Positions 51,059 through 61,676 of a DNA stretch of 64,000 nucleotides are shown piece by piece (positions within the stretch are counted from its first letter, which is position 1; the number at the start of each line of letters is the position of its first letter). The notes below the pieces were generated by a model, which searched no databases, was not told the origin of the DNA, and saw only the letters and a program-made list of their open reading frames with translations. The stretch is taken from IMG/VR virus record IMGVR_UViG_3300036770_008028, positions 62,001 through 126,000 of that record. One strand, 5' to 3'. This stretch comes from a virus. Both the position numbers and the translations under genes were made by a program.

Positions 51059-52150
51059 TTACGAGTTGGCCTGCAGGATGTACTTGCCGTAACGCTGATG
51101 GAACTCGTCAAAATTCTTGAGCTTGGTGGGCTGGAATGGCAGGTTGTAGGTTGTGAGCGCGATGCGAGCACCCATCACCACCAGCTCGGTCTCGAAGTTC
51201 TTCATCATGTAGCCGAAGAAATTATCCGCCATGGCATGGAACTCTTTGTCTGTGACCTTGCGGACCTCCAAGGCATCTTTGAGTTCATAGCACAATGAAA
51301 TCACCAGGCTGTACATGGCCGAAACTTCTTTGACCTGCAGTTCTTTTTCTTTGCCCGACAGAATGTCTTCTGGCTGTGGCAGTTTGCCGGAGATCTTGCG
51401 ATGTGCCTGGAATTTCACTGCCAAGCCCTCGCCCACTGTACCAGCGATCAAGTCAGTGGCCGAAGCATCATCGAGGTCCTCGTCCTCTAGCAGTTCGCTC
51501 ACAAAGGTCCATGAACGTGGTGTAGCGAATGCACGGCTGGACGATTTAGCATCGAAGTCGTAGAGGTCCTGCTTGGCGAAACTCAAGTATCCGACCACGT
51601 CTTTGTGGATGCCGTTGAGCACAGCCCACTCTTGCCAGACTGCAAAGTCAGGACGCATCTCCACATGGACGAAACGATTGGCCAAGGGCGTGGGCATGCG
51701 ATAGGTAACACCCTTGTCAGATTCACGGTTGCCCGCGGCGATCATCACAACATTGTCGGGCATGCGGTATTTGCCGATGCGTCGGTTCAGCACCAACTGA
51801 TAGGCCGCGGCCTGTACCGCAGGTGCCGCCGAGTTCATCTCGTCCATGAACAACACCACCACAGGATACTGGCTGGCCAGTTCATCGTCGGGCAAGTCGA
51901 TGGGCGGCGCCCAGTCCATCTTGCCTAACTCTTTGTTGAAGAACGGAATACCACGGATGTCGGTTGGGTCCATCTGTCCCAGGCGCAGATCGATCATGAA
52001 GCCGCCCAGTTCCTGGGTGATATCGGCCACTACCTCGCTCTTGCCGATACCGGGAGGCCCCCACAGGAACATGGGTCGTTTTTTGTTGAAACACTTTTTG
52101 ATTGCTCGGCGGGCACCAATCGCAGTAACGGTGCGGGTTTCTACGGACAC
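51059..52150 (-). CDS. MoxR-type AAA+ ATPase
   Basis: A 363-residue protein. Walker A 'GPPGIGKS' at residues 31-38, Walker B 'VVVLFMDEM' (D103-E104) and a sensor region 'VVMIAAGNRESDKGVTYRMP' are clear. MoxR ATPases act as chaperones with VWA-domain partners to remodel or activate proteins; the partner here is the VWA/HEXXH protein at 48222. I choose GTG 52150 because AAGGA lies 8 nt before it; the upstream TTG at 52186 lies at the promoter itself. Expressed from the promoter at 52189-52217, with a palindrome over its -10. Confidence 0.88.
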   Translation of the reverse strand: MSVETRTVTAIGARRAIKKCFNKKRPMFLWGPPGIGKSEVVADITQELGGFMIDLRLGQMDPTDIRGIPFFNKELGKMDWAPPIDLPDDELASQYPVVVLFMDEMNSAAPAVQAAAYQLVLNRRIGKYRMPDNVVMIAAGNRESDKGVTYRMPTPLANRFVHVEMRPDFAVWQEWAVLNGIHKDVVGYLSFAKQDLYDFDAKSSSRAFATPRSWTFVSELLEDEDLDDASATDLIAGTVGEGLAVKFQAHRKISGKLPQPEDILSGKEKELQVKEVSAMYSLVISLCYELKDALEVRKVTDKEFHAMADNFFGYMMKNFETELVVMGARIALTTYNLPFQPTKLKNFDEFHQRYGKYILQANS

Positions 52151-52180
52151 AGGGCTTTTCCTTTCGATCGTTGACTTACT

Positions 52181-52195
52181 GTACAATCATTGTAC
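52181..52195 (-). promoter_or_regulatory. Palindromic operator candidate over the MoxR -10
   Basis: GTACAATGATTGTAC on the minus strand: perfect 7-bp arms around a single central base. It contains the -10 hexamer TACAAT, so a dimeric repressor bound here would block transcription. Confidence 0.55.
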
Positions 52196-52237: not shown

Positions 52238-52257
52238 TAGTAGGTGCTTACCTACTA
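52238..52257 (-). repeat. Inverted repeat at the end of the ABC operon
   Basis: TAGTAGGT-GCTT-ACCTACTA, perfect 8-bp arms, overlapping the stop codon of the radical SAM gene. No T-run follows on the minus strand, so it is either a weak terminator, a 3' mRNA stabiliser or part of the MoxR control region. Confidence 0.5.
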
Positions 52258-53481
52258 GTAGCGTCCCTGTAGTTCCGGGATCAGTGCATCCAGGCTGGTG
52301 GACCGGATGGTATCATAACTACGTATTATGTCCTGCATCTGCGCCCATGCAGGATCAACAACTGCTTGCTGGCAGTGAGCCAGCATGGCTTGTACGCATT
52401 CCATAGATCGATGCCAATCTGATACACAGCGAAAGTTGCTTTGTCTGGACTGGACCAATTTCGCAGCCCTAGTCAACCTTTCGATAGACAACTGGATGAG
52501 ATCTGTGGGCAAATTGGCCACTGCCAGCGAACGGGGCCACATGATATATTCTAGGCTGTGGCGAAGTCCCCGTTCGCTGGCAAAATCGATCAGACGATCT
52601 ACAGCCAACACATTGAGTCCGTACAGCACTGTGTGCAGATCCATGTCGGGAAATCTAAGTTGACATGCGTCTACAAATTGCATTTTTTTTTGCCAATTGC
52701 TGGGATATCTCAGATATTCGTCCAGGGCACCGTGACCATCCACGCTGACAGTGATTGAGACCTTCTGGAACTGATCCAACAAGTCCATGAAAGACTCTTT
52801 GACATTCACACCATTGGTGGTAATTATCAGTCTTATATGTTGACTATGACCTTGATCCACACACCACCCTAGATAGTCATGCAATGGTCTACTGATGGTG
52901 GGCTCGCCGCCAGCCAAATTGATCCATTGCAGTTGTGGGGTGATCAGTTTTAGTCTATCGAGATCGTCTACAGTGAGCGAAAACACCTGATCTGTTCCAG
53001 CGGTCACAGCAAATCTTGATTTTTCGTGGATAGGCCAGCCAAGTCGATCGTAATCTTTTTTGATACTGCGGCTGTAATTGGGATTGCAAGTGATACAGCG
53101 CAATTGGCATAGATTGCCGCAACTGAGATTGAGTCCCTGGATCAGTGATCTGGACTCAATGTTATCGATCAAATGCTGCATATCAATATCATCGACCTCG
53201 TTCCGACCTAGATACCGAAGGTTGCGACGTTGGCGCATGCTGGTTTTTCCATCGGCTTCATTGCGCCAACACAGATCGCATTCGGGCACCGCATCGCCGT
53301 TGATAAATCTCCTACGGAGATCGACCATGTATCCGCCGTACCAGTGTTGATCAAGACCAACGGAACGGCTGTCGTTGTGCTGCACTAAACTTTGATTCTC
53401 TTTGCAACATAGACCATACTTGAATTCCGGATTGATCCATATTTCATACCATGGCACTGAGCAAATGCGCTTGGCAGTCAT
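52255..53481 (-). CDS. Radical SAM protein of the ABC-importer operon
   Basis: A 408-residue protein; ATG 53481 overlaps the previous stop (ATGA). N-terminal twitch-like cysteines C7, C25-C26, C68 and C71 ('ICSVPW', 'YGLCCKEN', 'ECDLCWRNE'). Cluster motif C125-x3-C129-x2-C132 ('CQLRCITC'), 'LAGGEPTIS', and 'LDEYLRYPSNW' in place of the array's EYIRxGxDW. Related to the five-gene array at 27-34 kb but encoded in a different operon. Last gene of the unit that starts with the ABC importer. Substrate unknown. Confidence 0.82.
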   Translation of the reverse strand: MTAKRICSVPWYEIWINPEFKYGLCCKENQSLVQHNDSRSVGLDQHWYGGYMVDLRRRFINGDAVPECDLCWRNEADGKTSMRQRRNLRYLGRNEVDDIDMQHLIDNIESRSLIQGLNLSCGNLCQLRCITCNPNYSRSIKKDYDRLGWPIHEKSRFAVTAGTDQVFSLTVDDLDRLKLITPQLQWINLAGGEPTISRPLHDYLGWCVDQGHSQHIRLIITTNGVNVKESFMDLLDQFQKVSITVSVDGHGALDEYLRYPSNWQKKMQFVDACQLRFPDMDLHTVLYGLNVLAVDRLIDFASERGLRHSLEYIMWPRSLAVANLPTDLIQLSIERLTRAAKLVQSRQSNFRCVSDWHRSMECVQAMLAHCQQAVVDPAWAQMQDIIRSYDTIRSTSLDALIPELQGRY

Positions 53482-54224
53482 TGATCAAACCATTGTTGTT
53501 TGACGCTGCAGTTCGTCATGTGCAACAGTTCTGCGTTCAGGCTGTGCCGATCGATCCGACCAACCAACACGTAACGAGTCCAACTGTCGGTATTGATCAC
53601 GCTGTGCAGCCAGGTCTGATTGTTCACCAAGTAGATGTACCCGCATCTGTGTTGCAGGTAACCCGCTGGCCAAAATTTCAGATTGGCTGCGCAAGGGTTC
53701 AACGGCATCCAGAAATATTCCATAGTGGTGGTTCCCTGGACTTTGGGATCTCGATGAGGTTGTATCCAACCTCCTGGTGCCAAGGCCTTGACATCTGCCC
53801 AGTGAAGGCGTATGCCTAATTCGCGCATGCGTTCGCGGATGTCTTGACACACTTCGGGATGCAACCGTGGACGGACAACTTCTGCTGGCATTTGTGTGCC
53901 GGAAATCTGAGCCGCCAGGGCAGGATAGTGGTCACGGAGAATAGCACATTGTTGCCAGCCTTTTTGGTGCTCGGTTGCGAACCATGAACGCCCTTGCGAC
54001 TGATTGTGTAATCTACGATTCTGTTGTTCTGCGATTTCGTCAAACAATACGTGGTGTTCTTGTTCCAGAATCTTAGCACTGTGGTGAGTATCGAATTTGA
54101 TGGGCAGTTCAACCCAGGGAATGTCAGTTCTATACCAAAAGGTTTCTGGATCCCACGACCACACTCCGGTAGGCCGGTAGCCGGGAAAATCTGCTGCATG
54201 GAAATCTGCGGTGTATTGATTCAT
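53478..54224 (-). CDS. Aspartyl/asparaginyl beta-hydroxylase-like 2OG oxygenase
   Basis: A 248-residue protein; ATG 54224 overlaps the upstream stop (ATGA). The iron site is H157-x-D159 ('IQPHRDP') with H207 ('TWLHSVIN'), and R217 ('SWTRYVLVG') fits the 2-oxoglutarate contact. The spacing and 'PLNP....KFWPAG' context resemble the Asp/Asn beta-hydroxylase branch of cupin-fold oxygenases, which hydroxylate amino-acid side chains. Coupled to the radical SAM gene downstream by a 4-nt overlap. Confidence 0.78.
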   Translation of the reverse strand: MNQYTADFHAADFPGYRPTGVWSWDPETFWYRTDIPWVELPIKFDTHHSAKILEQEHHVLFDEIAEQQNRRLHNQSQGRSWFATEHQKGWQQCAILRDHYPALAAQISGTQMPAEVVRPRLHPEVCQDIRERMRELGIRLHWADVKALAPGGWIQPHRDPKVQGTTTMEYFWMPLNPCAANLKFWPAGYLQHRCGYIYLVNNQTWLHSVINTDSWTRYVLVGRIDRHSLNAELLHMTNCSVKQQWFDQ

Positions 54225-54691
54225 GAGCGCTCGGCACACCATTGCCAGAATGGCGTGGTAAAGTCCATGCTCCAGATGCCATTCAACCTTAGTTGAGTGG
54301 CTCCGGCATATATGGGGTCGATATGGATACCGCGTGCGGACATGTCGTTGACCCAGGCCTCCGGCATGCTGTGGCGGAATGTGCCCGCGCCATACAAAAG
54401 ATGTTCCAGGCGTATACTGGCTATCTCGATGTCCATGATTTCAACATAATGATCTATAATATCGTCCTGGTCCAGCACTAGATCCTGATCTGTTTTGTCT
54501 CGCATGATCAATTGCAAACGATTGACAGATTGTAAATCAGCATCATAGGCTAGTATCTGGCATTCTTGACACTGCGAATACGGGCTGGCCCACAGCAGAC
54601 GCTGTGCTAACCGCTGACCATTGAGCCAAACTTCGACGGTTGGTCTGCGACGGCCATAATGGAACTGCAAGAAAAATTTGATTGTTGTCAT
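54221..54691 (-). CDS. Predicted beta-sandwich protein, paralogue of 27120
   Basis: A 156-residue protein. The order 'LVLDQDDIIDHYVEIMDIEI', 'IRLEHLLYG' and 'LRLNGIWSMDFTTPFWQW' parallels the 150-residue protein at 27120. The N-terminus 'IKFFLQFHYGRRRPTVEVWL' is beta-rich. Possibly carbohydrate-binding. It starts 20 nt after the PP-loop gene, and its stop overlaps the oxygenase ATG. Confidence 0.5.
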   Translation of the reverse strand: MTTIKFFLQFHYGRRRPTVEVWLNGQRLAQRLLWASPYSQCQECQILAYDADLQSVNRLQLIMRDKTDQDLVLDQDDIIDHYVEIMDIEIASIRLEHLLYGAGTFRHSMPEAWVNDMSARGIHIDPIYAGATQLRLNGIWSMDFTTPFWQWCAERS

Positions 54692-54711
54692 CGATAATCA
54701 CTGTGTGGCAC

Positions 54712-55836
54712 TTACTTAGCGTGTGATAGATGTCTGAGATTTGATGCCAGAGGCCTCACAGGATACCAATCACTCAGTATGACTGGCAACCAATCACTAT
54801 CTCGCTGGTGTGGCACAGCAATTTTCGTAATCGTTTCTATGTCGCGCAATCCTTGTTGCCAGACTCCAAGTTCACTGCTGTTTTTATCATGGATGAGGTT
54901 TTTGGCTGACATACTTTCGGGACTGTTTGGATTTTGCGCGACTCGTGACTTAAGCCATCCCTGCCGCGCGCTGCTGTTGTCTACACAGGTTCGGCCCATG
55001 GCTCGGTTCCACACTTCATATTGCCAGTCCAGACATTGGTTACCTTGCACTTTGTGGAAATGATCAAACCCGTCAGGACCCATGACCATTATCATATTTT
55101 CAAAATGATCTATGGCCATGTGACACTGAGCCACGTGCAAATCGGTCAGATCATTGGTCATGTAGAAGAATTCGCAATCGGTATTCATGTACTGATACAT
55201 TCCGGCATCAACACCGAAATTGTACCATGTACCGTCGGCAAGCAGCACCCGAGGTTTGTCGTGAGCCCAGATATCAGCGCGTCGGCTGTGTTGGTCAATG
55301 ATCCGGGCAGTGCTAGATATATGATTTTGTAAAAAATATCTATGCATTTTTGGATACATAATGCTGCAGCCAGGACTGAAAATCCAATCTTCCCCTAGAT
55401 CACAGTATACCGAAGCAAAATGCCAGTGGTTGACAGGTACATGATTTACCACAAGTTTGGGCATGTGCTGTTGTTTTACCTGATGTGCGTAAGATACCGC
55501 ACTGTGGATTTCGGGATCATCAAACCACTGCCGATCATAGATCACCACCTCATCCAAGGCGATGCCATTGGCAACGAAGGCATCCAACACAGTGGTACTG
55601 TCCCATCCCCCGCTGAACCATAGAGTCAACCAATCATATCGGTCGCGCAGTTGCAGGCAACGCTGTCGAAGTAGGTCTTGCCATGTCGCAGACGGTCTTG
55701 CAAAATTGCACTGCCCAAATGTGGAGCGTAAAAAATTGAAACGTATACGAGATACATCTCCTTGTGCCTCTCGGAAAGCATCTATCTTGCTATGTGTACG
55801 ATAATTTCCCACCTCATAATAAAGTTCCTGTATCAT
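54712..55836 (-). CDS. PP-loop ATPase, asparagine-synthase-like
   Basis: A 374-residue protein. The PP-loop S75-G-G-W-D-S80 ('LWFSGGWDSTTVLDAF') binds the pyrophosphate of ATP, as in asparagine synthetases, thiouridylases and related adenylating enzymes. No N-terminal glutaminase domain with a catalytic Cys2 is present, so the nitrogen or sulfur donor differs or a partner supplies it. ATG 55836 overlaps the permease stop (ATGA). It could activate a carboxylate or amide in the same pathway as the oxygenase and radical SAM genes. Confidence 0.8.
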   Translation of the reverse strand: MIQELYYEVGNYRTHSKIDAFREAQGDVSRIRFNFLRSTFGQCNFARPSATWQDLLRQRCLQLRDRYDWLTLWFSGGWDSTTVLDAFVANGIALDEVVIYDRQWFDDPEIHSAVSYAHQVKQQHMPKLVVNHVPVNHWHFASVYCDLGEDWIFSPGCSIMYPKMHRYFLQNHISSTARIIDQHSRRADIWAHDKPRVLLADGTWYNFGVDAGMYQYMNTDCEFFYMTNDLTDLHVAQCHMAIDHFENMIMVMGPDGFDHFHKVQGNQCLDWQYEVWNRAMGRTCVDNSSARQGWLKSRVAQNPNSPESMSAKNLIHDKNSSELGVWQQGLRDIETITKIAVPHQRDSDWLPVILSDWYPVRPLASNLRHLSHAK

Positions 55837-56582
55837 CTACGTGGTATCAATCTTGAAAATGACCATGACATGATGCCACCCAAAATCATGATCATGAGCA
55901 GGCACGCGTAGACCTCTAGGTGATCGAATCTTCCCTTGAAGTCATACATCAAGGTACCAATGCCAATGTGTCCACCCACTGTGCCAAACACTATTTCGAC
56001 CGCAAACAGGATGCGCCACAGGAACATGAAATAGGTTTTGCTCAATGACACCAATCCCGGCAGCATGCTGGGCACATAGACCTTGATCACTGCCTGCCAC
56101 GGCGTGAGTCTTAGGTCACGTATCTGTCGGCTCCATGTGTCGTGACTGATGGTCACTAAGCTGTACACACTAGGCAAAAAAACCCAAAGCACGCCCCATG
56201 TCATGAGGGTGAAAATCAGGCTCTGTGAAAATCCAAAGAAGATCAAAAAAACCGGTAACCAACTCATGGTCGGGGTGGGTCCCAGCATATCACAAAAATT
56301 TATGGTGAGCCGTCGGGCAAATTTGTTAGGGTATGTGGCCAGTACAATGACCAACATAAGAATCGACACCATGGCAAATGATACCACTGTCATCCAAACG
56401 CTGTTTGCCACTGCCTCTAGAAATTGCACCCTGCCCAGCATTTCAACCAGTTTTATCAGTACCAAATGTAGATGCGGCCACAGCAGCTGATTGTCTACCA
56501 CCCATGCTGTGGTCTGCCACAGCATGGCCAGCAGTAGCAGCATGGCCAGTCTAGTCTGAAAGGTATTGTTTGACATGGTCAT
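55833..56582 (-). CDS. ABC importer permease (nitrate/sulfonate/thiamine-precursor type)
   Basis: A 249-residue membrane protein with about six hydrophobic segments: the first at residues 11-30, then clusters near 60-85, 100-130 and 125-150, with two more after 180. The cytoplasmic EAA-like loop is 'IRDLRLTPWQAVIKVYVPSM' with 'LPGL' following, as in SsuC/TauC/ThiX-type permeases that contact the ATPase. The gene overlaps the ATPase by 32 nt and the PP-loop gene by 4 nt. With its neighbours it completes an importer in the inner membrane. Confidence 0.88.
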   Translation of the reverse strand: MTMSNNTFQTRLAMLLLLAMLWQTTAWVVDNQLLWPHLHLVLIKLVEMLGRVQFLEAVANSVWMTVVSFAMVSILMLVIVLATYPNKFARRLTINFCDMLGPTPTMSWLPVFLIFFGFSQSLIFTLMTWGVLWVFLPSVYSLVTISHDTWSRQIRDLRLTPWQAVIKVYVPSMLPGLVSLSKTYFMFLWRILFAVEIVFGTVGGHIGIGTLMYDFKGRFDHLEVYACLLMIMILGGIMSWSFSRLIPRR

Positions 56583-57180
56583 AGGTGATTTGTTCCGGTC
56601 GGAGTTTGATCAATGAGTCTGGGGTCAGCATGCAGCAGTGATCCGACAGCAAAGCGGCCTCGTCGATGTTGTGTGTGATCCATAGCACTCCTAAATTTTG
56701 TTCCCTGACCAATCTACGGAAGTCATCTGCTATGGTCATCGCAGTGAAACTATCCAGATGATTCAACGGTTCATCGCACAGCAGCAGTTCTGCTCCACGA
56801 TATATAGATCTCAACAACACAAAGCGCTGCCGTTGACCACCGCTGATCTCGTCAGGTCTGCGATCGATCAGCGGTGTAAGTTTCCAGCGCTCCGCCACTG
56901 TGGTCCAGGCTTCATTGACCTTGGCCAGCAGGAAATTTTGTTTCACGGTCATCCAGGGAAACAGTTGATTGTCTCCCTGGTACACACTGTGCAAGATTGG
57001 CTTGCCTATGATTCGACCTTGGTGTGCAAGGTCACCTCTGATGGACTCCAACAAGGTAGTTTTGCCCACCCCACTGCGGCCCATCAGTACCAGAATTTCT
57101 CCTGGCCTGATTTCGAGGTCAACCTGCGGTAGGCAAGCCACACCCTGCCGCAAGGGTTGAAAACCTTCAAGACGTATCAC
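56551..57180 (-). CDS. ABC importer ATPase subunit
   Basis: A 209-residue protein from GTG 57180, which overlaps the previous stop (GTGA); the frame extends to a TTG at 57219. Walker A 'GRSGVGKT' (34-41), Q-loop 'YQGDNQLFPWMTV', signature 'ISGGQRQR', Walker B 'LLLCDEPLNHLDS' and H-switch 'WITHN' are all intact, so it should hydrolyse ATP. Length and motifs fit the NitT/TauT group. Q-loop 'DNQLFPW' is as in SsuB/TauB. Confidence 0.92.
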   Translation of the reverse strand: MIRLEGFQPLRQGVACLPQVDLEIRPGEILVLMGRSGVGKTTLLESIRGDLAHQGRIIGKPILHSVYQGDNQLFPWMTVKQNFLLAKVNEAWTTVAERWKLTPLIDRRPDEISGGQRQRFVLLRSIYRGAELLLCDEPLNHLDSFTAMTIADDFRRLVREQNLGVLWITHNIDEAALLSDHCCMLTPDSLIKLRPEQITYDHVKQYLSD

Positions 57181-58136
57181 AGCAGATCTTCGCGCCAGAT
57201 GATGCTTTTTTGGTCCCAAGACTTCATGCTGCCTGCAGGTAGCATGCCCATTTCTTCAGTTAGATGCAACCAATCCATCACAGCAGGTGTGAATTTGGTA
57301 AAGGCAACTATGTTCATCTCTTTGTAGTAGCGCACGATGGTATCAGCGTCAAGGTCTTTGAGATCATGTCTTTCTACCATGGCTCGCGCCAGGACCGGCA
57401 TGTTAGTGTTGTACTCCTGCTGAGCCACCTTGATGGTATCCAGCAAGGCCAGTGCCAATTTGGGATTGTCTTTGGCCCATTGTGTGTTGATCACTGCAGA
57501 ATTAAGAAAGCCGGTTTGACCGGGATACAGCACTCGGTTACCCATTTCGCGCAATTTATTGCTGATTGGTGCTCCTTGGATAGCACAATCAATACCTTTC
57601 GTCCCACTGGCAAATGCCTGCAGTGTCTGTACTTGGCTGAGCAACACGATCTGGTCTTCCAGCGCCAAGGGGTCACCAAAATTATCGCGGGCCAGTTTCT
57701 GGATGATCAGATGACTGCCGCTCTGCTTGCCCGAAATGATGATGCTGCGTTTGTTGGCTTTGATGTCCTGGATATCTTTCACATAGGGCTTGCAGACCAA
57801 TGGGGCGTCTGAAGTATTGAACATGCTGATAAATTGCAGTTTTCCCGGAGACTCTTTGTGCAGTTTTACGATGGTGGGCAAACTGGCAATGTTGATGTGG
57901 CTCTTGCCAGTCATGAGATTGGTCAAGGCCTCCACTGAGCCTCTGGAATATTGGATTTCCAATTTTGCGTTGTTGATGCCGTGGCGCTTGGCCACTTCCG
58001 GAAAGTGTTTTTGCATGGACAGCACGATCATTTCCGGACTGGCCAATTTTACTGCGGTCAAAGTGAGCGTCTCGGCCCAGGCCACGGATGTGGTCAGTGC
58101 AGCGGCCATGACGGTCCCTAAAAAGATGCGTTTCAT
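57177..58136 (-). CDS. Periplasmic substrate-binding protein of the ABC importer
   Basis: A 319-residue protein. ATG 58136 has GGAG 8 nt upstream. The signal peptide is clear: MKRIF, a hydrophobic stretch, and AWA before ETLTL, with no lipobox Cys, so it is exported and soluble in a Gram-negative periplasm. The fold pattern ('LTAVKLASPEMIVLSMQKHF', 'EALTNLMTGKSHINIASLPT', 'DCAIQGAPISNKLREMG') fits the NMT1/SsuA/ThiY type-2 binding proteins, whose ligands include sulfonates, nitrate, riboflavin and thiamine precursors. The ligand cannot be deduced. First gene of the seven-gene operon, with the two-hairpin element in its leader or promoter. Confidence 0.88.
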   Translation of the reverse strand: MKRIFLGTVMAAALTTSVAWAETLTLTAVKLASPEMIVLSMQKHFPEVAKRHGINNAKLEIQYSRGSVEALTNLMTGKSHINIASLPTIVKLHKESPGKLQFISMFNTSDAPLVCKPYVKDIQDIKANKRSIIISGKQSGSHLIIQKLARDNFGDPLALEDQIVLLSQVQTLQAFASGTKGIDCAIQGAPISNKLREMGNRVLYPGQTGFLNSAVINTQWAKDNPKLALALLDTIKVAQQEYNTNMPVLARAMVERHDLKDLDADTIVRYYKEMNIVAFTKFTPAVMDWLHLTEEMGMLPAGSMKSWDQKSIIWREDLL

Positions 58137-58195
58137 CAAAAAATCTCCATAAAGATGTAAGTGAAATTGCTAGTAGAAGAACTCTACACACGGTA

Positions 58196-58238: not shown

Positions 58239-58316
58239 GCGTCTAAGAAAATCCGACGTCGAACCATTCGGCGCTGCTGAATTTATTTATTGCAGCAAAT
58301 CGTGTTAAATAAAAAA

Positions 58317-58880
58317 ATGAATGACTATTTTTTCCAACCAATAGATCTGCCACCGCTTCCGGAGCGCTTTGTCGAACAGGCTCTGACTGGAACTCGGACT
58401 GATCTCTTGGTGACCAGCGTTGACAGGCAGATACATGATCGAGGCAGTGTTTATCGTAATGCACAACTACAACGCTGGCGACTTAGCCAAGATCTGGTAG
58501 AGTGGCTGCACCAACAGGGCATCAAAGGATTCGACGACGTTTCGGTACAGACCATACAGCAAGGCGATACCTTGGGCCCGCACACTGACAGTTGGCAAAG
58601 CTGCAAACTGTTCTATCTTTTGGAACCGGGTGGTCCAAACGTGGAAACGATATGGTATCAGCAACCAGGACATGATTTGATCCGGGAAAAATTCCTTTTG
58701 ATTGAAGATACCAAGGACCTTGAAGTGGTTCATAGGATGGTTATTCCACCGCGGCAGTGGGGCTTCATCAATGTGCGAATTATACATGAAGTAAAAAACA
58801 TGACCAACCGCAGAGAAACTGTGGTTGCCAGTTTCACTGACTACATCGATTTCTCACCTTTGGTGGTGCAGAAAAAATAG
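58317..58880 (+). CDS. 2OG-Fe(II) oxygenase-like protein
   Basis: A 187-residue protein from ATG 58317; the in-frame start at 58290 has no ribosome site, and GTTAAATAAA precedes the ATG. Iron ligands H89-x-D91 ('LGPHTDSW') and H157 ('IIHEVKN'), with R166 ('NRRETVVASF') as the 2-oxoglutarate contact. A different family branch from the oxygenases at 25103 and 53478. Diverges from the ABC operon. The intrinsic terminator of the tmRNA lies at its 3' end on the opposite strand. Confidence 0.72.
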   Translation: MNDYFFQPIDLPPLPERFVEQALTGTRTDLLVTSVDRQIHDRGSVYRNAQLQRWRLSQDLVEWLHQQGIKGFDDVSVQTIQQGDTLGPHTDSWQSCKLFYLLEPGGPNVETIWYQQPGHDLIREKFLLIEDTKDLEVVHRMVIPPRQWGFINVRIIHEVKNMTNRRETVVASFTDYIDFSPLVVQKK

Positions 58881-58899
58881 GCCCCATAACAGGGCCTAT
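58877..58899 (-). terminator. Intrinsic terminator of the tmRNA transcript
   Basis: ATAGGCCC-TGTTATG-GGGCCTAT followed by a T-run on the minus strand, right after the tmRNA coding piece. On the plus strand a looser T-run also follows, so it may serve the gene at 58317 as well. Confidence 0.8.
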
Positions 58900-58924
58900 C
58901 CTGACATTTTTGATAACAAGGCAT

Positions 58925-59225
58925 GTCTGCCCCGGAGATCATGCTGCTAAGGCAAAGATCTCGTCATTGGATGCGTTGGCATCTATTGGTTTTGCTTGAT
59001 TTAGGGTCATCGCCTACCCCGCTGTCCACTCGGCTACTCCTTGCCCTGTCGAAACCATGTTCAGGCCCATCATAAGCAGTCGCAATCGGTATAGGTTGAT
59101 CAAATCTATACCAATCCGTCCTAAGCGTAACAACTGCTTATGGTGGACCTGCCGGGATTCGAACCCGGGTCCAGAACACATTTTGCTCTGCTTCATACAG
59201 CGATAATGACGAAACTGCCAGGACA
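58925..59225 (-). ncRNA. ssrA: Circularly permuted two-piece tmRNA
   Basis: The acceptor piece comes first: T-arm CCGGG-TTCGAAT-CCCGG, then CAGGTCC-ACCA ending at 59141. A 72-nt intervening segment (59140-59069) has TAAGCAGT pairing with ACTGCTTA and an inner GGTATAG/CTATACC hairpin. The coding piece starts at 59068 with GGGCCTG, which pairs with CAGGTCC through all seven positions, the third being G-U as required for alanine charging. 'GGTTTCGACAGGGC' follows. ACAGCG (59025-59020) pairs with CGCTGT (59202-59197), giving helix 2. The tag frame (58995-58939) reads AKPIDANASNDEIFALAA then TGA, with GAGATC/GATCTC enclosing the stop. The outer 5' end is approximate. Confidence 0.9.
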
Positions 59226-59324
59226 TGTACGGGCTTCGCCTGCCCTAAGGCCTCACACCTTATCGATCTTGCCAGTGGATTGATCAAGCGCCACTGGGGA
59301 TATACTCCTGCACAGTAAGTCTAT

Positions 59325-61049: not shown

Positions 61050-61655
61050 TCAGTCCACTATGGGTCCGTTGCCGTTGCGAAAGCCCACGGTACCACCTTC
61101 GGCTTCGATGCGCTTGATCACATCCTCGAACAAGATAGGCGCGAAGTCCGGAGTCTGCTCTACACAAACGCAGTGGTAACGACTATCGAGTTCTGTGCCG
61201 TAAAGAGTCGCTCCGGTACGAGCATCAACGCCACGAGCTCGACGCACGCGTTGGTAATGCAAGTGTCCATGGATGTTGGTGCCAAAGCGACCAAGGCTGG
61301 CTTCGTGAACAGGAATATGACTAAGGATCATTCCGTTCATCACATGGTAAGCACGCAGTTCACGGAAGTACTCACGGTATTCATCATCGCGGAAGATGTC
61401 GTGGTTGCCACGGATAAGCACCTTGTCGCCGTTGATGCGAGCAAGAGTCTTGAGACTCTTCCGGTTGATTACGACGTCTCCGAGGTGATATACCTTGTCT
61501 TGAGGTCGGACACGTTCGTTCCACACCCGCACCAGATGTTCATCCATCTCTTCTGGATCTGTCCAAGGCCGCAGTTTGCTACCGTCGTCTCGGGTGAAGC
61601 GGCACACACCAGCGTGACCAAAGTGCGTGTCAGATACTAACCATACTGCTGGCAT
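61050..61655 (-). CDS. Calcineurin-like metallophosphoesterase
   Basis: A 201-residue protein. I take the second of two ATGs (61655) because the G-rich ribosome site touches the first. Metal-binding motifs are complete: 'SDTHFGH' (D-x-H), 'YHLGDVV' (GD), 'IRGNHD' (GNHD), 'LSHIPVH' and 'NIHGHLH' (GHxH). The family hydrolyses phosphodiesters or phosphomonoesters; phage members are often of unknown substrate. Followed by the coupled 52-residue gene. Confidence 0.9.
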   Translation of the reverse strand: MPAVWLVSDTHFGHAGVCRFTRDDGSKLRPWTDPEEMDEHLVRVWNERVRPQDKVYHLGDVVINRKSLKTLARINGDKVLIRGNHDIFRDDEYREYFRELRAYHVMNGMILSHIPVHEASLGRFGTNIHGHLHYQRVRRARGVDARTGATLYGTELDSRYHCVCVEQTPDFAPILFEDVIKRIEAEGGTVGFRNGNGPIVD

Positions 61656-61676
61656 CATGCCCCCCTTTCTTGGTGA

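What the first reader, a model, noticed from the sequence alone, without database searches (positions are those of the whole stretch)
52255..58136. Complete ABC importer in a phage operon with PP-loop, oxygenase and radical SAM enzymes
Binding protein with signal peptide, ATPase with all motifs and permease are intact and translationally coupled to a PP-loop ATPase, a beta-sandwich protein, an Asp/Asn-hydroxylase-like oxygenase and a twitch-type radical SAM enzyme. Phages often carry single periplasmic binding proteins; a whole importer joined to four modification genes is, as far as I know, not described. It may import a precursor that the enzymes convert, or feed a host pathway during infection.
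Basis: partly seen in the sequence, partly recalled or inferred. Interest (0 to 1): 0.88.

Follow-up and report, generated by a model that had tools for sequence, protein, structure and literature searches.

The report
Phage importer coupled to PP-loop enzyme
A giant virus of freshwater bacteria carries a complete nutrient-import pump in one gene row with four enzymes, and its relatives repeatedly pair the same ATP-using enzyme with a different uptake protein, which suggests these viruses import a small molecule during infection and chemically activate it.

Summary
Seven intact, overlapping genes (52255-58139, minus strand) encode a NitT/TauT-type ABC importer (binding protein, ATPase, permease), then a PP-loop enzyme, an orphan, an Asp-hydroxylase-like protein and a twitch radical SAM enzyme. 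The contig is part of a jumbo myovirus. The cassette sits in a variable slot between genes conserved in relatives, so misassembly is very unlikely; the host is probably a betaproteobacterium.

Two corrections. First, whole importers of this class are not unique among phages: Bacillus phage G, the Lak phages and the 735-kb phage carry them in another architecture. Second, the new point is elsewhere. The PP-loop gene belongs to a family found here only in environmental jumbo phages, and it lies next to a periplasmic solute-binding protein again and again. Eleven of 16 TctC-type binding proteins in 40 records are within 1.5 kb of a PP-loop gene (random mean 0.4-2.7). In two relatives the pair occupies this same slot. 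The window therefore looks like a variant in which an ABC importer replaces the TctC protein.

Best reading: import of a small carboxylate and its ATP activation by the PP-loop enzyme. Module strongly supported; ligand and chemistry inferred.

The parts
57177..58136 (-). periplasmic substrate-binding protein, NitT/TauT type, signal peptide MKRIFLGTVMAAALTTSVAWA
   Evidence: hhalign 90%, E 1.4e-6 to bacterial NitT SBPs; not TctC, 4.9%; phrog_6856 0.0014; RBS
56551..57219 (-). ABC ATPase with all motifs; true start probably downstream of the TTG at 57219
   Evidence: PF00005 3.1e-22; ntrCD 7e-28; NrtC/CmpC among best PDB hits
55833..56582 (-). ABC permease, BPD_transp_1, NitT/TauT type
   Evidence: 4.2e-10; phrog_6743 1.6e-11; NrtB, CmpB weak
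54712..55836 (-). PP-loop ATP pyrophosphatase-fold enzyme, phage-specific family; ATGA overlap with the permease stop
   Evidence: SGGxDS; S75, G77, D79 invariant in 21; LarE fold
54221..54691 (-).
   Evidence: no family; 33 no phage relative
53478..54242 (-). Asp/Asn-hydroxylase-like Fe(II)/2OG oxygenase, HRD...H...R residues
   Evidence: PF05118 0.0012, below cut-off; no close relative
52255..53481 (-). twitch-domain radical SAM enzyme, CQLRCITC
   Evidence: NF033640 237 bits, cut-off 170
51059..52186 (-). left boundary: phage-conserved MoxR-type ATPase
   Evidence: 72-86% in seven related phage contigs
61050..61658 (-). right boundary: phage-conserved phosphoesterase
   Evidence: 74-83% in related phage contigs, same order

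Best explanation
A jumbo phage of freshwater Burkholderiales carries an import-and-activate cassette. During infection the binding protein is exported to the periplasm, captures a small organic acid, and hands it to the phage-encoded permease/ATPase, which pumps it in. The co-translated PP-loop enzyme then activates the molecule with ATP (adenylation of a carboxylate, followed by attack of an N or S nucleophile), and the oxygenase and radical SAM enzyme may tailor the product further. It is a variant of a two-gene module (solute-binding protein plus PP-loop enzyme) that recurs in jumbo phages, usually with a TctC-type binding protein that could use host TctAB permeases; here a full ABC importer takes the TctC protein's place. 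Shown: intact genes, phage location, the recurrent pairing, and the same slot in two relatives with TctC. Inferred: that the importer works, that the ligand is a carboxylate, and that the imported ligand is the substrate of the PP-loop enzyme.
For: Phage: MCP 91-93% to IMG/VR contigs and 66% to PA5oct. The cassette lies between MoxR and a phosphoesterase that are collinear in relatives. PP-loop homologues in 26 viral loci. TctC/PP-loop adjacency: 11 of 16 TctC hits within 1.5 kb versus a random mean of 0.43 (any record) or 2.7 (own record), never reached in 20,000 placements; restricted to long records, 7 of 10 versus 0.52; TctC in 12 of 19 PP-loop records and 1 of 21 others. Overlapping TctC-PP-loop genes in the same MoxR slot in G033/G085 and G089. 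Fold: LarE, which adenylates a carboxylate (function from general knowledge), is the best PDB match (3e-5). The nearest bacterial importers stand next to MmgE/PrpD, tartronate-semialdehyde-reductase-like, Fe-S tartrate/fumarate hydratase, Ldh_2 and galactarate-dehydratase-type genes, and in L214 a TctC gene, which points to hydroxy- or dicarboxylates.
Against: The permease is only 24-30% identical to bacterial relatives, so ligand transfer is weak. The LarE match covers only the catalytic core (about 145 residues, TM-score by query 0.24) and the LarE family model is far below its cut-off (13.8 of 150 bits). Some PP-loop genes lie beside other genes (a fatty-acid desaturase in L232, radical SAM genes in L245). 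The full seven-gene set was found once. No expression data. The SBP model failed (pLDDT 37).
Confidence: 0.42

Rival explanations
1. The importer is an ordinary auxiliary metabolic transporter: it feeds the infected host a nutrient (C, N or S), and the four enzymes merely share its promoter while serving surface or glycan modification.
For: The same contig carries PstS, a TctC-like protein and TctA, i.e. several nutrient uptake genes; clusters of radical SAM, glycosyltransferase and carbamoyltransferase-like genes lie elsewhere in the window. Phage transport genes such as pstS and tctA are known (PMC6359870, PMC4164917).
Against: Does not explain why the PP-loop family lies beside binding proteins in many phage lineages and in this same slot.
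Confidence: 0.3
2. The MoxR/phosphoesterase slot is a cargo hot spot that collects foreign genes; the neighbourhood of importer and PP-loop gene is coincidence without shared function.
For: The slot is highly variable across relatives: glycosyltransferases, PstS plus metallophosphoesterase, NodU-like genes.
Against: The TctC/PP-loop pairing also occurs at other sites in other contigs, often with overlapping ORFs and in both gene orders, and far exceeds random placement. The PP-loop family was absent from 300 Burkholderiales genomes, so it is not recent host cargo.
Confidence: 0.15
3. The periplasmic protein or importer acts against rivals: it occupies or replaces a host transporter or receptor to exclude superinfecting phages.
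For: It would explain phages keeping an exported binding protein and swapping its type.
Against: A complete importer with an intact ATPase is more than a decoy needs; no sequence evidence for receptor mimicry.
Confidence: 0.08
4. Misassembly or bacterial contamination.
For: The permease, ATPase and SBP have no close viral relative.
Against: Uniform GC, conserved phage flanks on both sides in collinear order, PP-loop homologues in the same slot, no bacterial copy.
Confidence: 0.02

Closest known systems
NitT/TauT-family ABC importers (nitrate NrtABCD, bicarbonate CmpABCD, taurine TauABC, sulfonate SsuABC)
   Same: Three-part make-up, best family and PDB matches, SBP profile match
   Different: 24-30% identity, ligand unknown, encoded by a phage and coupled to a PP-loop enzyme
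NitT-type importers of megaphages (Bacillus phage G gp243/245/249/250, Lak phages, 735-kb phage LR756501)
   Same: A complete importer of the same class in a huge phage; the window permease and the 735-kb phage permease both match phrog_6743
   Different: There the binding domain is fused to OmpA with an N-terminal anchor, the neighbours differ, and no PP-loop enzyme was seen; permeases 19-25% identical
TctC/Bug solute-binding protein plus PP-loop pairs in environmental jumbo phages
   Same: Same PP-loop family, same position of the binding protein directly upstream in the MoxR slot
   Different: Binding protein of another family and no membrane parts in the pair; the window has its own permease and ATPase
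LarE and other carboxylate- or thio-activating PP-loop enzymes
   Same: PP-loop SGGxDS and core fold
   Different: Far below the LarE model cut-off; 374 aa with a C-terminal half that matched nothing solved
Phage nutrient-uptake AMGs (pstS, tctA, amt)
   Same: Phage-borne uptake gene
   Different: Single subunits in the literature read here; here a full importer with enzymes

Membership tests
NitT/TauT ABC importer | ABC ATPase with Walker A/B, signature, Q- and H-loops | tested here: met
   sequence of 56551-57219; PF00005 80 bits, cut-off 25
NitT/TauT ABC importer | BPD_transp_1 permease | tested here: met
   PF00528 40.1 bits, cut-off 26.4
NitT/TauT ABC importer | NMT1/TauA-type binding protein | tested here: inconclusive
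   no Pfam hit; hhalign 90%, E 1.4e-6 to bacterial NitT SBPs; TIGR01729 0.0048
NitT/TauT ABC importer | uptake of a defined ligand | not testable with these tools
   needs binding and uptake assays
jumbo-phage binding protein/PP-loop module | PP-loop gene of this family adjacent to an exported solute-binding protein gene or its importer | tested here: met
   PP-loop gene overlaps the importer operon; recurrence
jumbo-phage binding protein/PP-loop module | binding protein of the TctC family | tested here: not met
   hhalign of the window SBP to the TctC set 4.9%: a variant, not the TctC form
LarE sulfur transferase | TIGR00268 over cut-off | tested here: not met
   13.8 bits, cut-off 150; fold of the core similar
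PP-loop ATP pyrophosphatase superfamily | SGGxDS loop and core fold | tested here: met
   S75, G77, D79 invariant in 21 sequences; model pTM 0.75; best PDB matches are PP-loop enzymes
N_Twi_rSAM (NF033640) | model over cut-off, CxxxCxxC | tested here: met
   237.3 bits, cut-off 170; CQLRCITC
Asp/Asn beta-hydroxylase (PF05118) | model over cut-off | tested here: not met
   19.1 bits, cut-off 22.6; the HxD...H...R residues are visible, so 'like' only

The most novel reading that the evidence does not exclude
Jumbo phages of aquatic betaproteobacteria share a previously undescribed 'import-and-activate' module, in which an exported solute-binding protein of interchangeable type (TctC, or NitT with a full ABC importer) delivers an environmental small molecule to a phage-specific PP-loop enzyme that builds a phage-specified product.
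Probability: 0.4. Interest if true: 0.87.

Novelty: new variant of a known kind. Interest (0 to 1): 0.72.

Why it matters
If true, these phages do more than boost host nutrition: they would bring their own uptake route for a building block and the enzyme that activates it, i.e. phage-directed import coupled to biosynthesis. The recurrent pairing names a specific enzyme family and specific binding proteins, so the ligand can be tested directly with purified proteins. It also shows that complete ABC importers of the NitT class have entered huge phages in at least two different architectures.

Tried and rejected
Close viral relatives of permease, SBP, PP-loop, AspH, 156-aa protein and radical SAM by single-sequence scans: none, apart from 21% identical Vibrio phage radical SAM proteins. 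Permease in 34 related jumbo contigs: none. Permease alignment against viral contigs: none. SBP against PDB sequences: none. AlphaFold of the SBP from a single sequence: pLDDT 37, discarded. PP-loop profile against PDB sequences: none, hence the fold search. Riboswitch upstream of the operon: no Rfam match there. Promoter and terminator scans close to chance, not used. 'Pseudomonas phage Y5/Y15' and 'Acinetobacter phage MD-2021a' hits look like bacterial DNA in phage records and were not counted as precedents. Text searches for phage-borne whole importers found no description in the open-access library; absence there is not proof.
Full report
1. Is it there? The six junctions are: SBP/ATPase 43-nt overlap at the listed TTG start, ATPase/permease 32-nt overlap, permease/PP-loop 4-nt overlap (ATGA), PP-loop/156-aa 20-nt gap, 156-aa/AspH 22-nt overlap, AspH/radical SAM 4-nt overlap (ATGA). 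Pfam and NCBIfam confirm ATPase, permease and radical SAM over cut-off; AspH is just under cut-off; the PP-loop and 156-aa proteins and the SBP have no Pfam family. The SBP matches NitT-type binding proteins of bacterial importers by profile (90%, E 1.4e-6) and not the TctC type (4.9%).

2. Is it phage? The window is bases 62001-126000 of a 157,498-base IMG/VR virus record. The record reads as a T4-related myovirus; its major capsid protein is 91-93% identical to other IMG/VR contigs and 66% to the 280-290-kb PA5oct group, so the record is probably about half of a jumbo genome. The MoxR-type ATPase left of the cassette is 72-86% conserved in seven related contigs, and the phosphoesterase to its right (61050-61658) is 74-83% conserved in the same order. 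What lies between varies: a cargo slot. GC is uniform. The host is probably a betaproteobacterium: the record's PstS is up to 82% identical to freshwater Burkholderiales and it carries a permuted tmRNA of the betaproteobacterial Rfam family.

3. Origin of the importer. The permease is absent from 34 related jumbo contigs. In about 800 bacterial genomes the best match is 30% identical. The closest relatives whose neighbourhood could be read are complete NitT-type importers, and their neighbours are carboxylate enzymes: MmgE/PrpD, a 2-hydroxy-3-oxopropionate-reductase-like protein and a TctC gene (L214-L216), Fe-S tartrate/fumarate hydratase subunits, a fumarate-reductase-type flavoprotein, Ldh_2 and a 2-hydroxyacid dehydrogenase (L278), a galactarate/altronate dehydratase-type gene with the same two dehydrogenases (L279). 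This suggests, without proving, a small hydroxy- or dicarboxylate, or a sulfo-carboxylate such as sulfolactate.

4. Precedent. The claim that a whole importer in a phage is undescribed needs correction at the level of sequence data. The 735-kb phage LR756501, fifteen Lak phages and Bacillus phage G carry SBP, permease and ATPase of the same class (the ATPase was read in one Lak genome). In phage G two are annotated as ABC transporter parts (gp243, gp245). Their binding domain is fused to OmpA, so the architecture is different. The open-access papers searched do not discuss these importers.

5. The recurrent module. Starting from the PP-loop homologue in contig G033 (24% identical over 271 residues, E 2e-17 in a direct comparison), 26 viral loci were found. 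In many of them the PP-loop gene overlaps or abuts a gene for an exported 290-340-residue solute-binding protein of the TctC family (Pfam PF03401); in some a DctP-family protein without an evident signal peptide follows (L228, L229). By my own count about 13 of 21 dereplicated PP-loop genes have a binding protein next to them or one gene away. Test: in 40 records (4.2 Mb, 25 PP-loop genes, 16 TctC hits), 11 TctC hits lie within 1.5 kb of a PP-loop gene, against a mean of 0.43 for random placement anywhere and 2.7 within the same record (some records are short); neither control reached 11 in 20,000 trials. In long records without the near-duplicate G086, 7 of 10 against 0.52, maximum 4. Caveat: the PP-loop records were found with a PP-loop copy that has a TctC neighbour, and the adjacency of divergent copies is the independent part.

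6. The window as a variant. In G033/G085 and in G089 the same MoxR slot holds PP-loop plus TctC, with the binding protein directly upstream of the PP-loop gene. The window has the same order, but with a NitT binding protein and its ATPase and permease in place of the TctC protein. Two unrelated uptake proteins in the same position next to the same enzyme is the best evidence that the enzyme and the uptake belong together.

7. Mechanism. The PP-loop family keeps SGGxDS; its model (pLDDT 73, pTM 0.75) is closest to LarE and sulfur transferases in the PDB, on the core only. PP-loop enzymes of this fold activate a carboxylate or carbonyl as an adenylate and release PPi (general knowledge). I therefore propose import of a small carboxylate, adenylation, and transfer of N or S to it, with possible oxidation by the other two enzymes. 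The first half (module, phage location) is shown; ligand, chemistry and product are inferred. The PP-loop family was found in none of 300 Burkholderiales genomes and in no record of the phage collection by tblastn, so it looks phage-specific and environmental; the positive control for the same profile is (it matched in all 19 expected records).

8. Limits. No expression data; the ligand is unknown; the SBP fold model failed; the seven-gene set was seen once; IMG/VR and GTDB subsets only.

Noticed in passing
window 58848-59233 (-): Phage-encoded permuted tmRNA of the betaproteobacterial type (RF01850 107 bits, cut-off 84; RF04321 127 bits, cut-off 47), tag ANASNDEIFALAA.
   Followed up: partly
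L006:10986-13974 (record 135986-138974, outside the window): Metallophosphoesterase (LpxH/PlcP-like), group-1 glycosyltransferase and PstS in a row on one strand: looks like a phage-borne phosphate-starvation lipid-remodelling set. In relative G025 an 82% identical phosphoesterase lies beside a 50% identical PstS.
   Followed up: partly
L006:7947-10468 (record 132947-135468): A second uptake system in the same phage: an intact TctA permease (PF01970 6e-92) overlapping an exported TctC-like protein that the Pfam TctC model does not recognise.
   Followed up: partly
L217:4990-8684, L220:6307-10201, L219:6534-13619: Conserved NitT-type importer with an SBP-OmpA fusion in the 735-kb phage, Lak phages and Bacillus phage G: a shared megaphage cassette across very different hosts.
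   Followed up: partly
L228:2934-3878, L229:8231-9187, L231:5449-6441, L240:430-1386: DctP (TRAP) family binding proteins near PP-loop genes whose N-termini show no signal peptide (Pfam tested for L228 and L229; others by sequence likeness).
   Followed up: no
window 22209-46036: Large cargo region with several twitch radical SAM genes, NodU-like carbamoyltransferase, amidinotransferase-like and DegT/epimerase-like genes; some have homologues beside PP-loop/TctC pairs (L241) and beside MoxR (L104).
   Followed up: partly
L258, L259, L260: TctC genes without a PP-loop gene are instead followed by a conserved about 210-aa gene (MKYIFVAGAPGSKWSS...) in three contigs: possibly another binding-protein/enzyme pair.
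   Followed up: no
window 58290-58880 (+): Divergent gene with HTD...H...R residues of a 2OG-Fe(II) oxygenase; no family hit.
   Followed up: no
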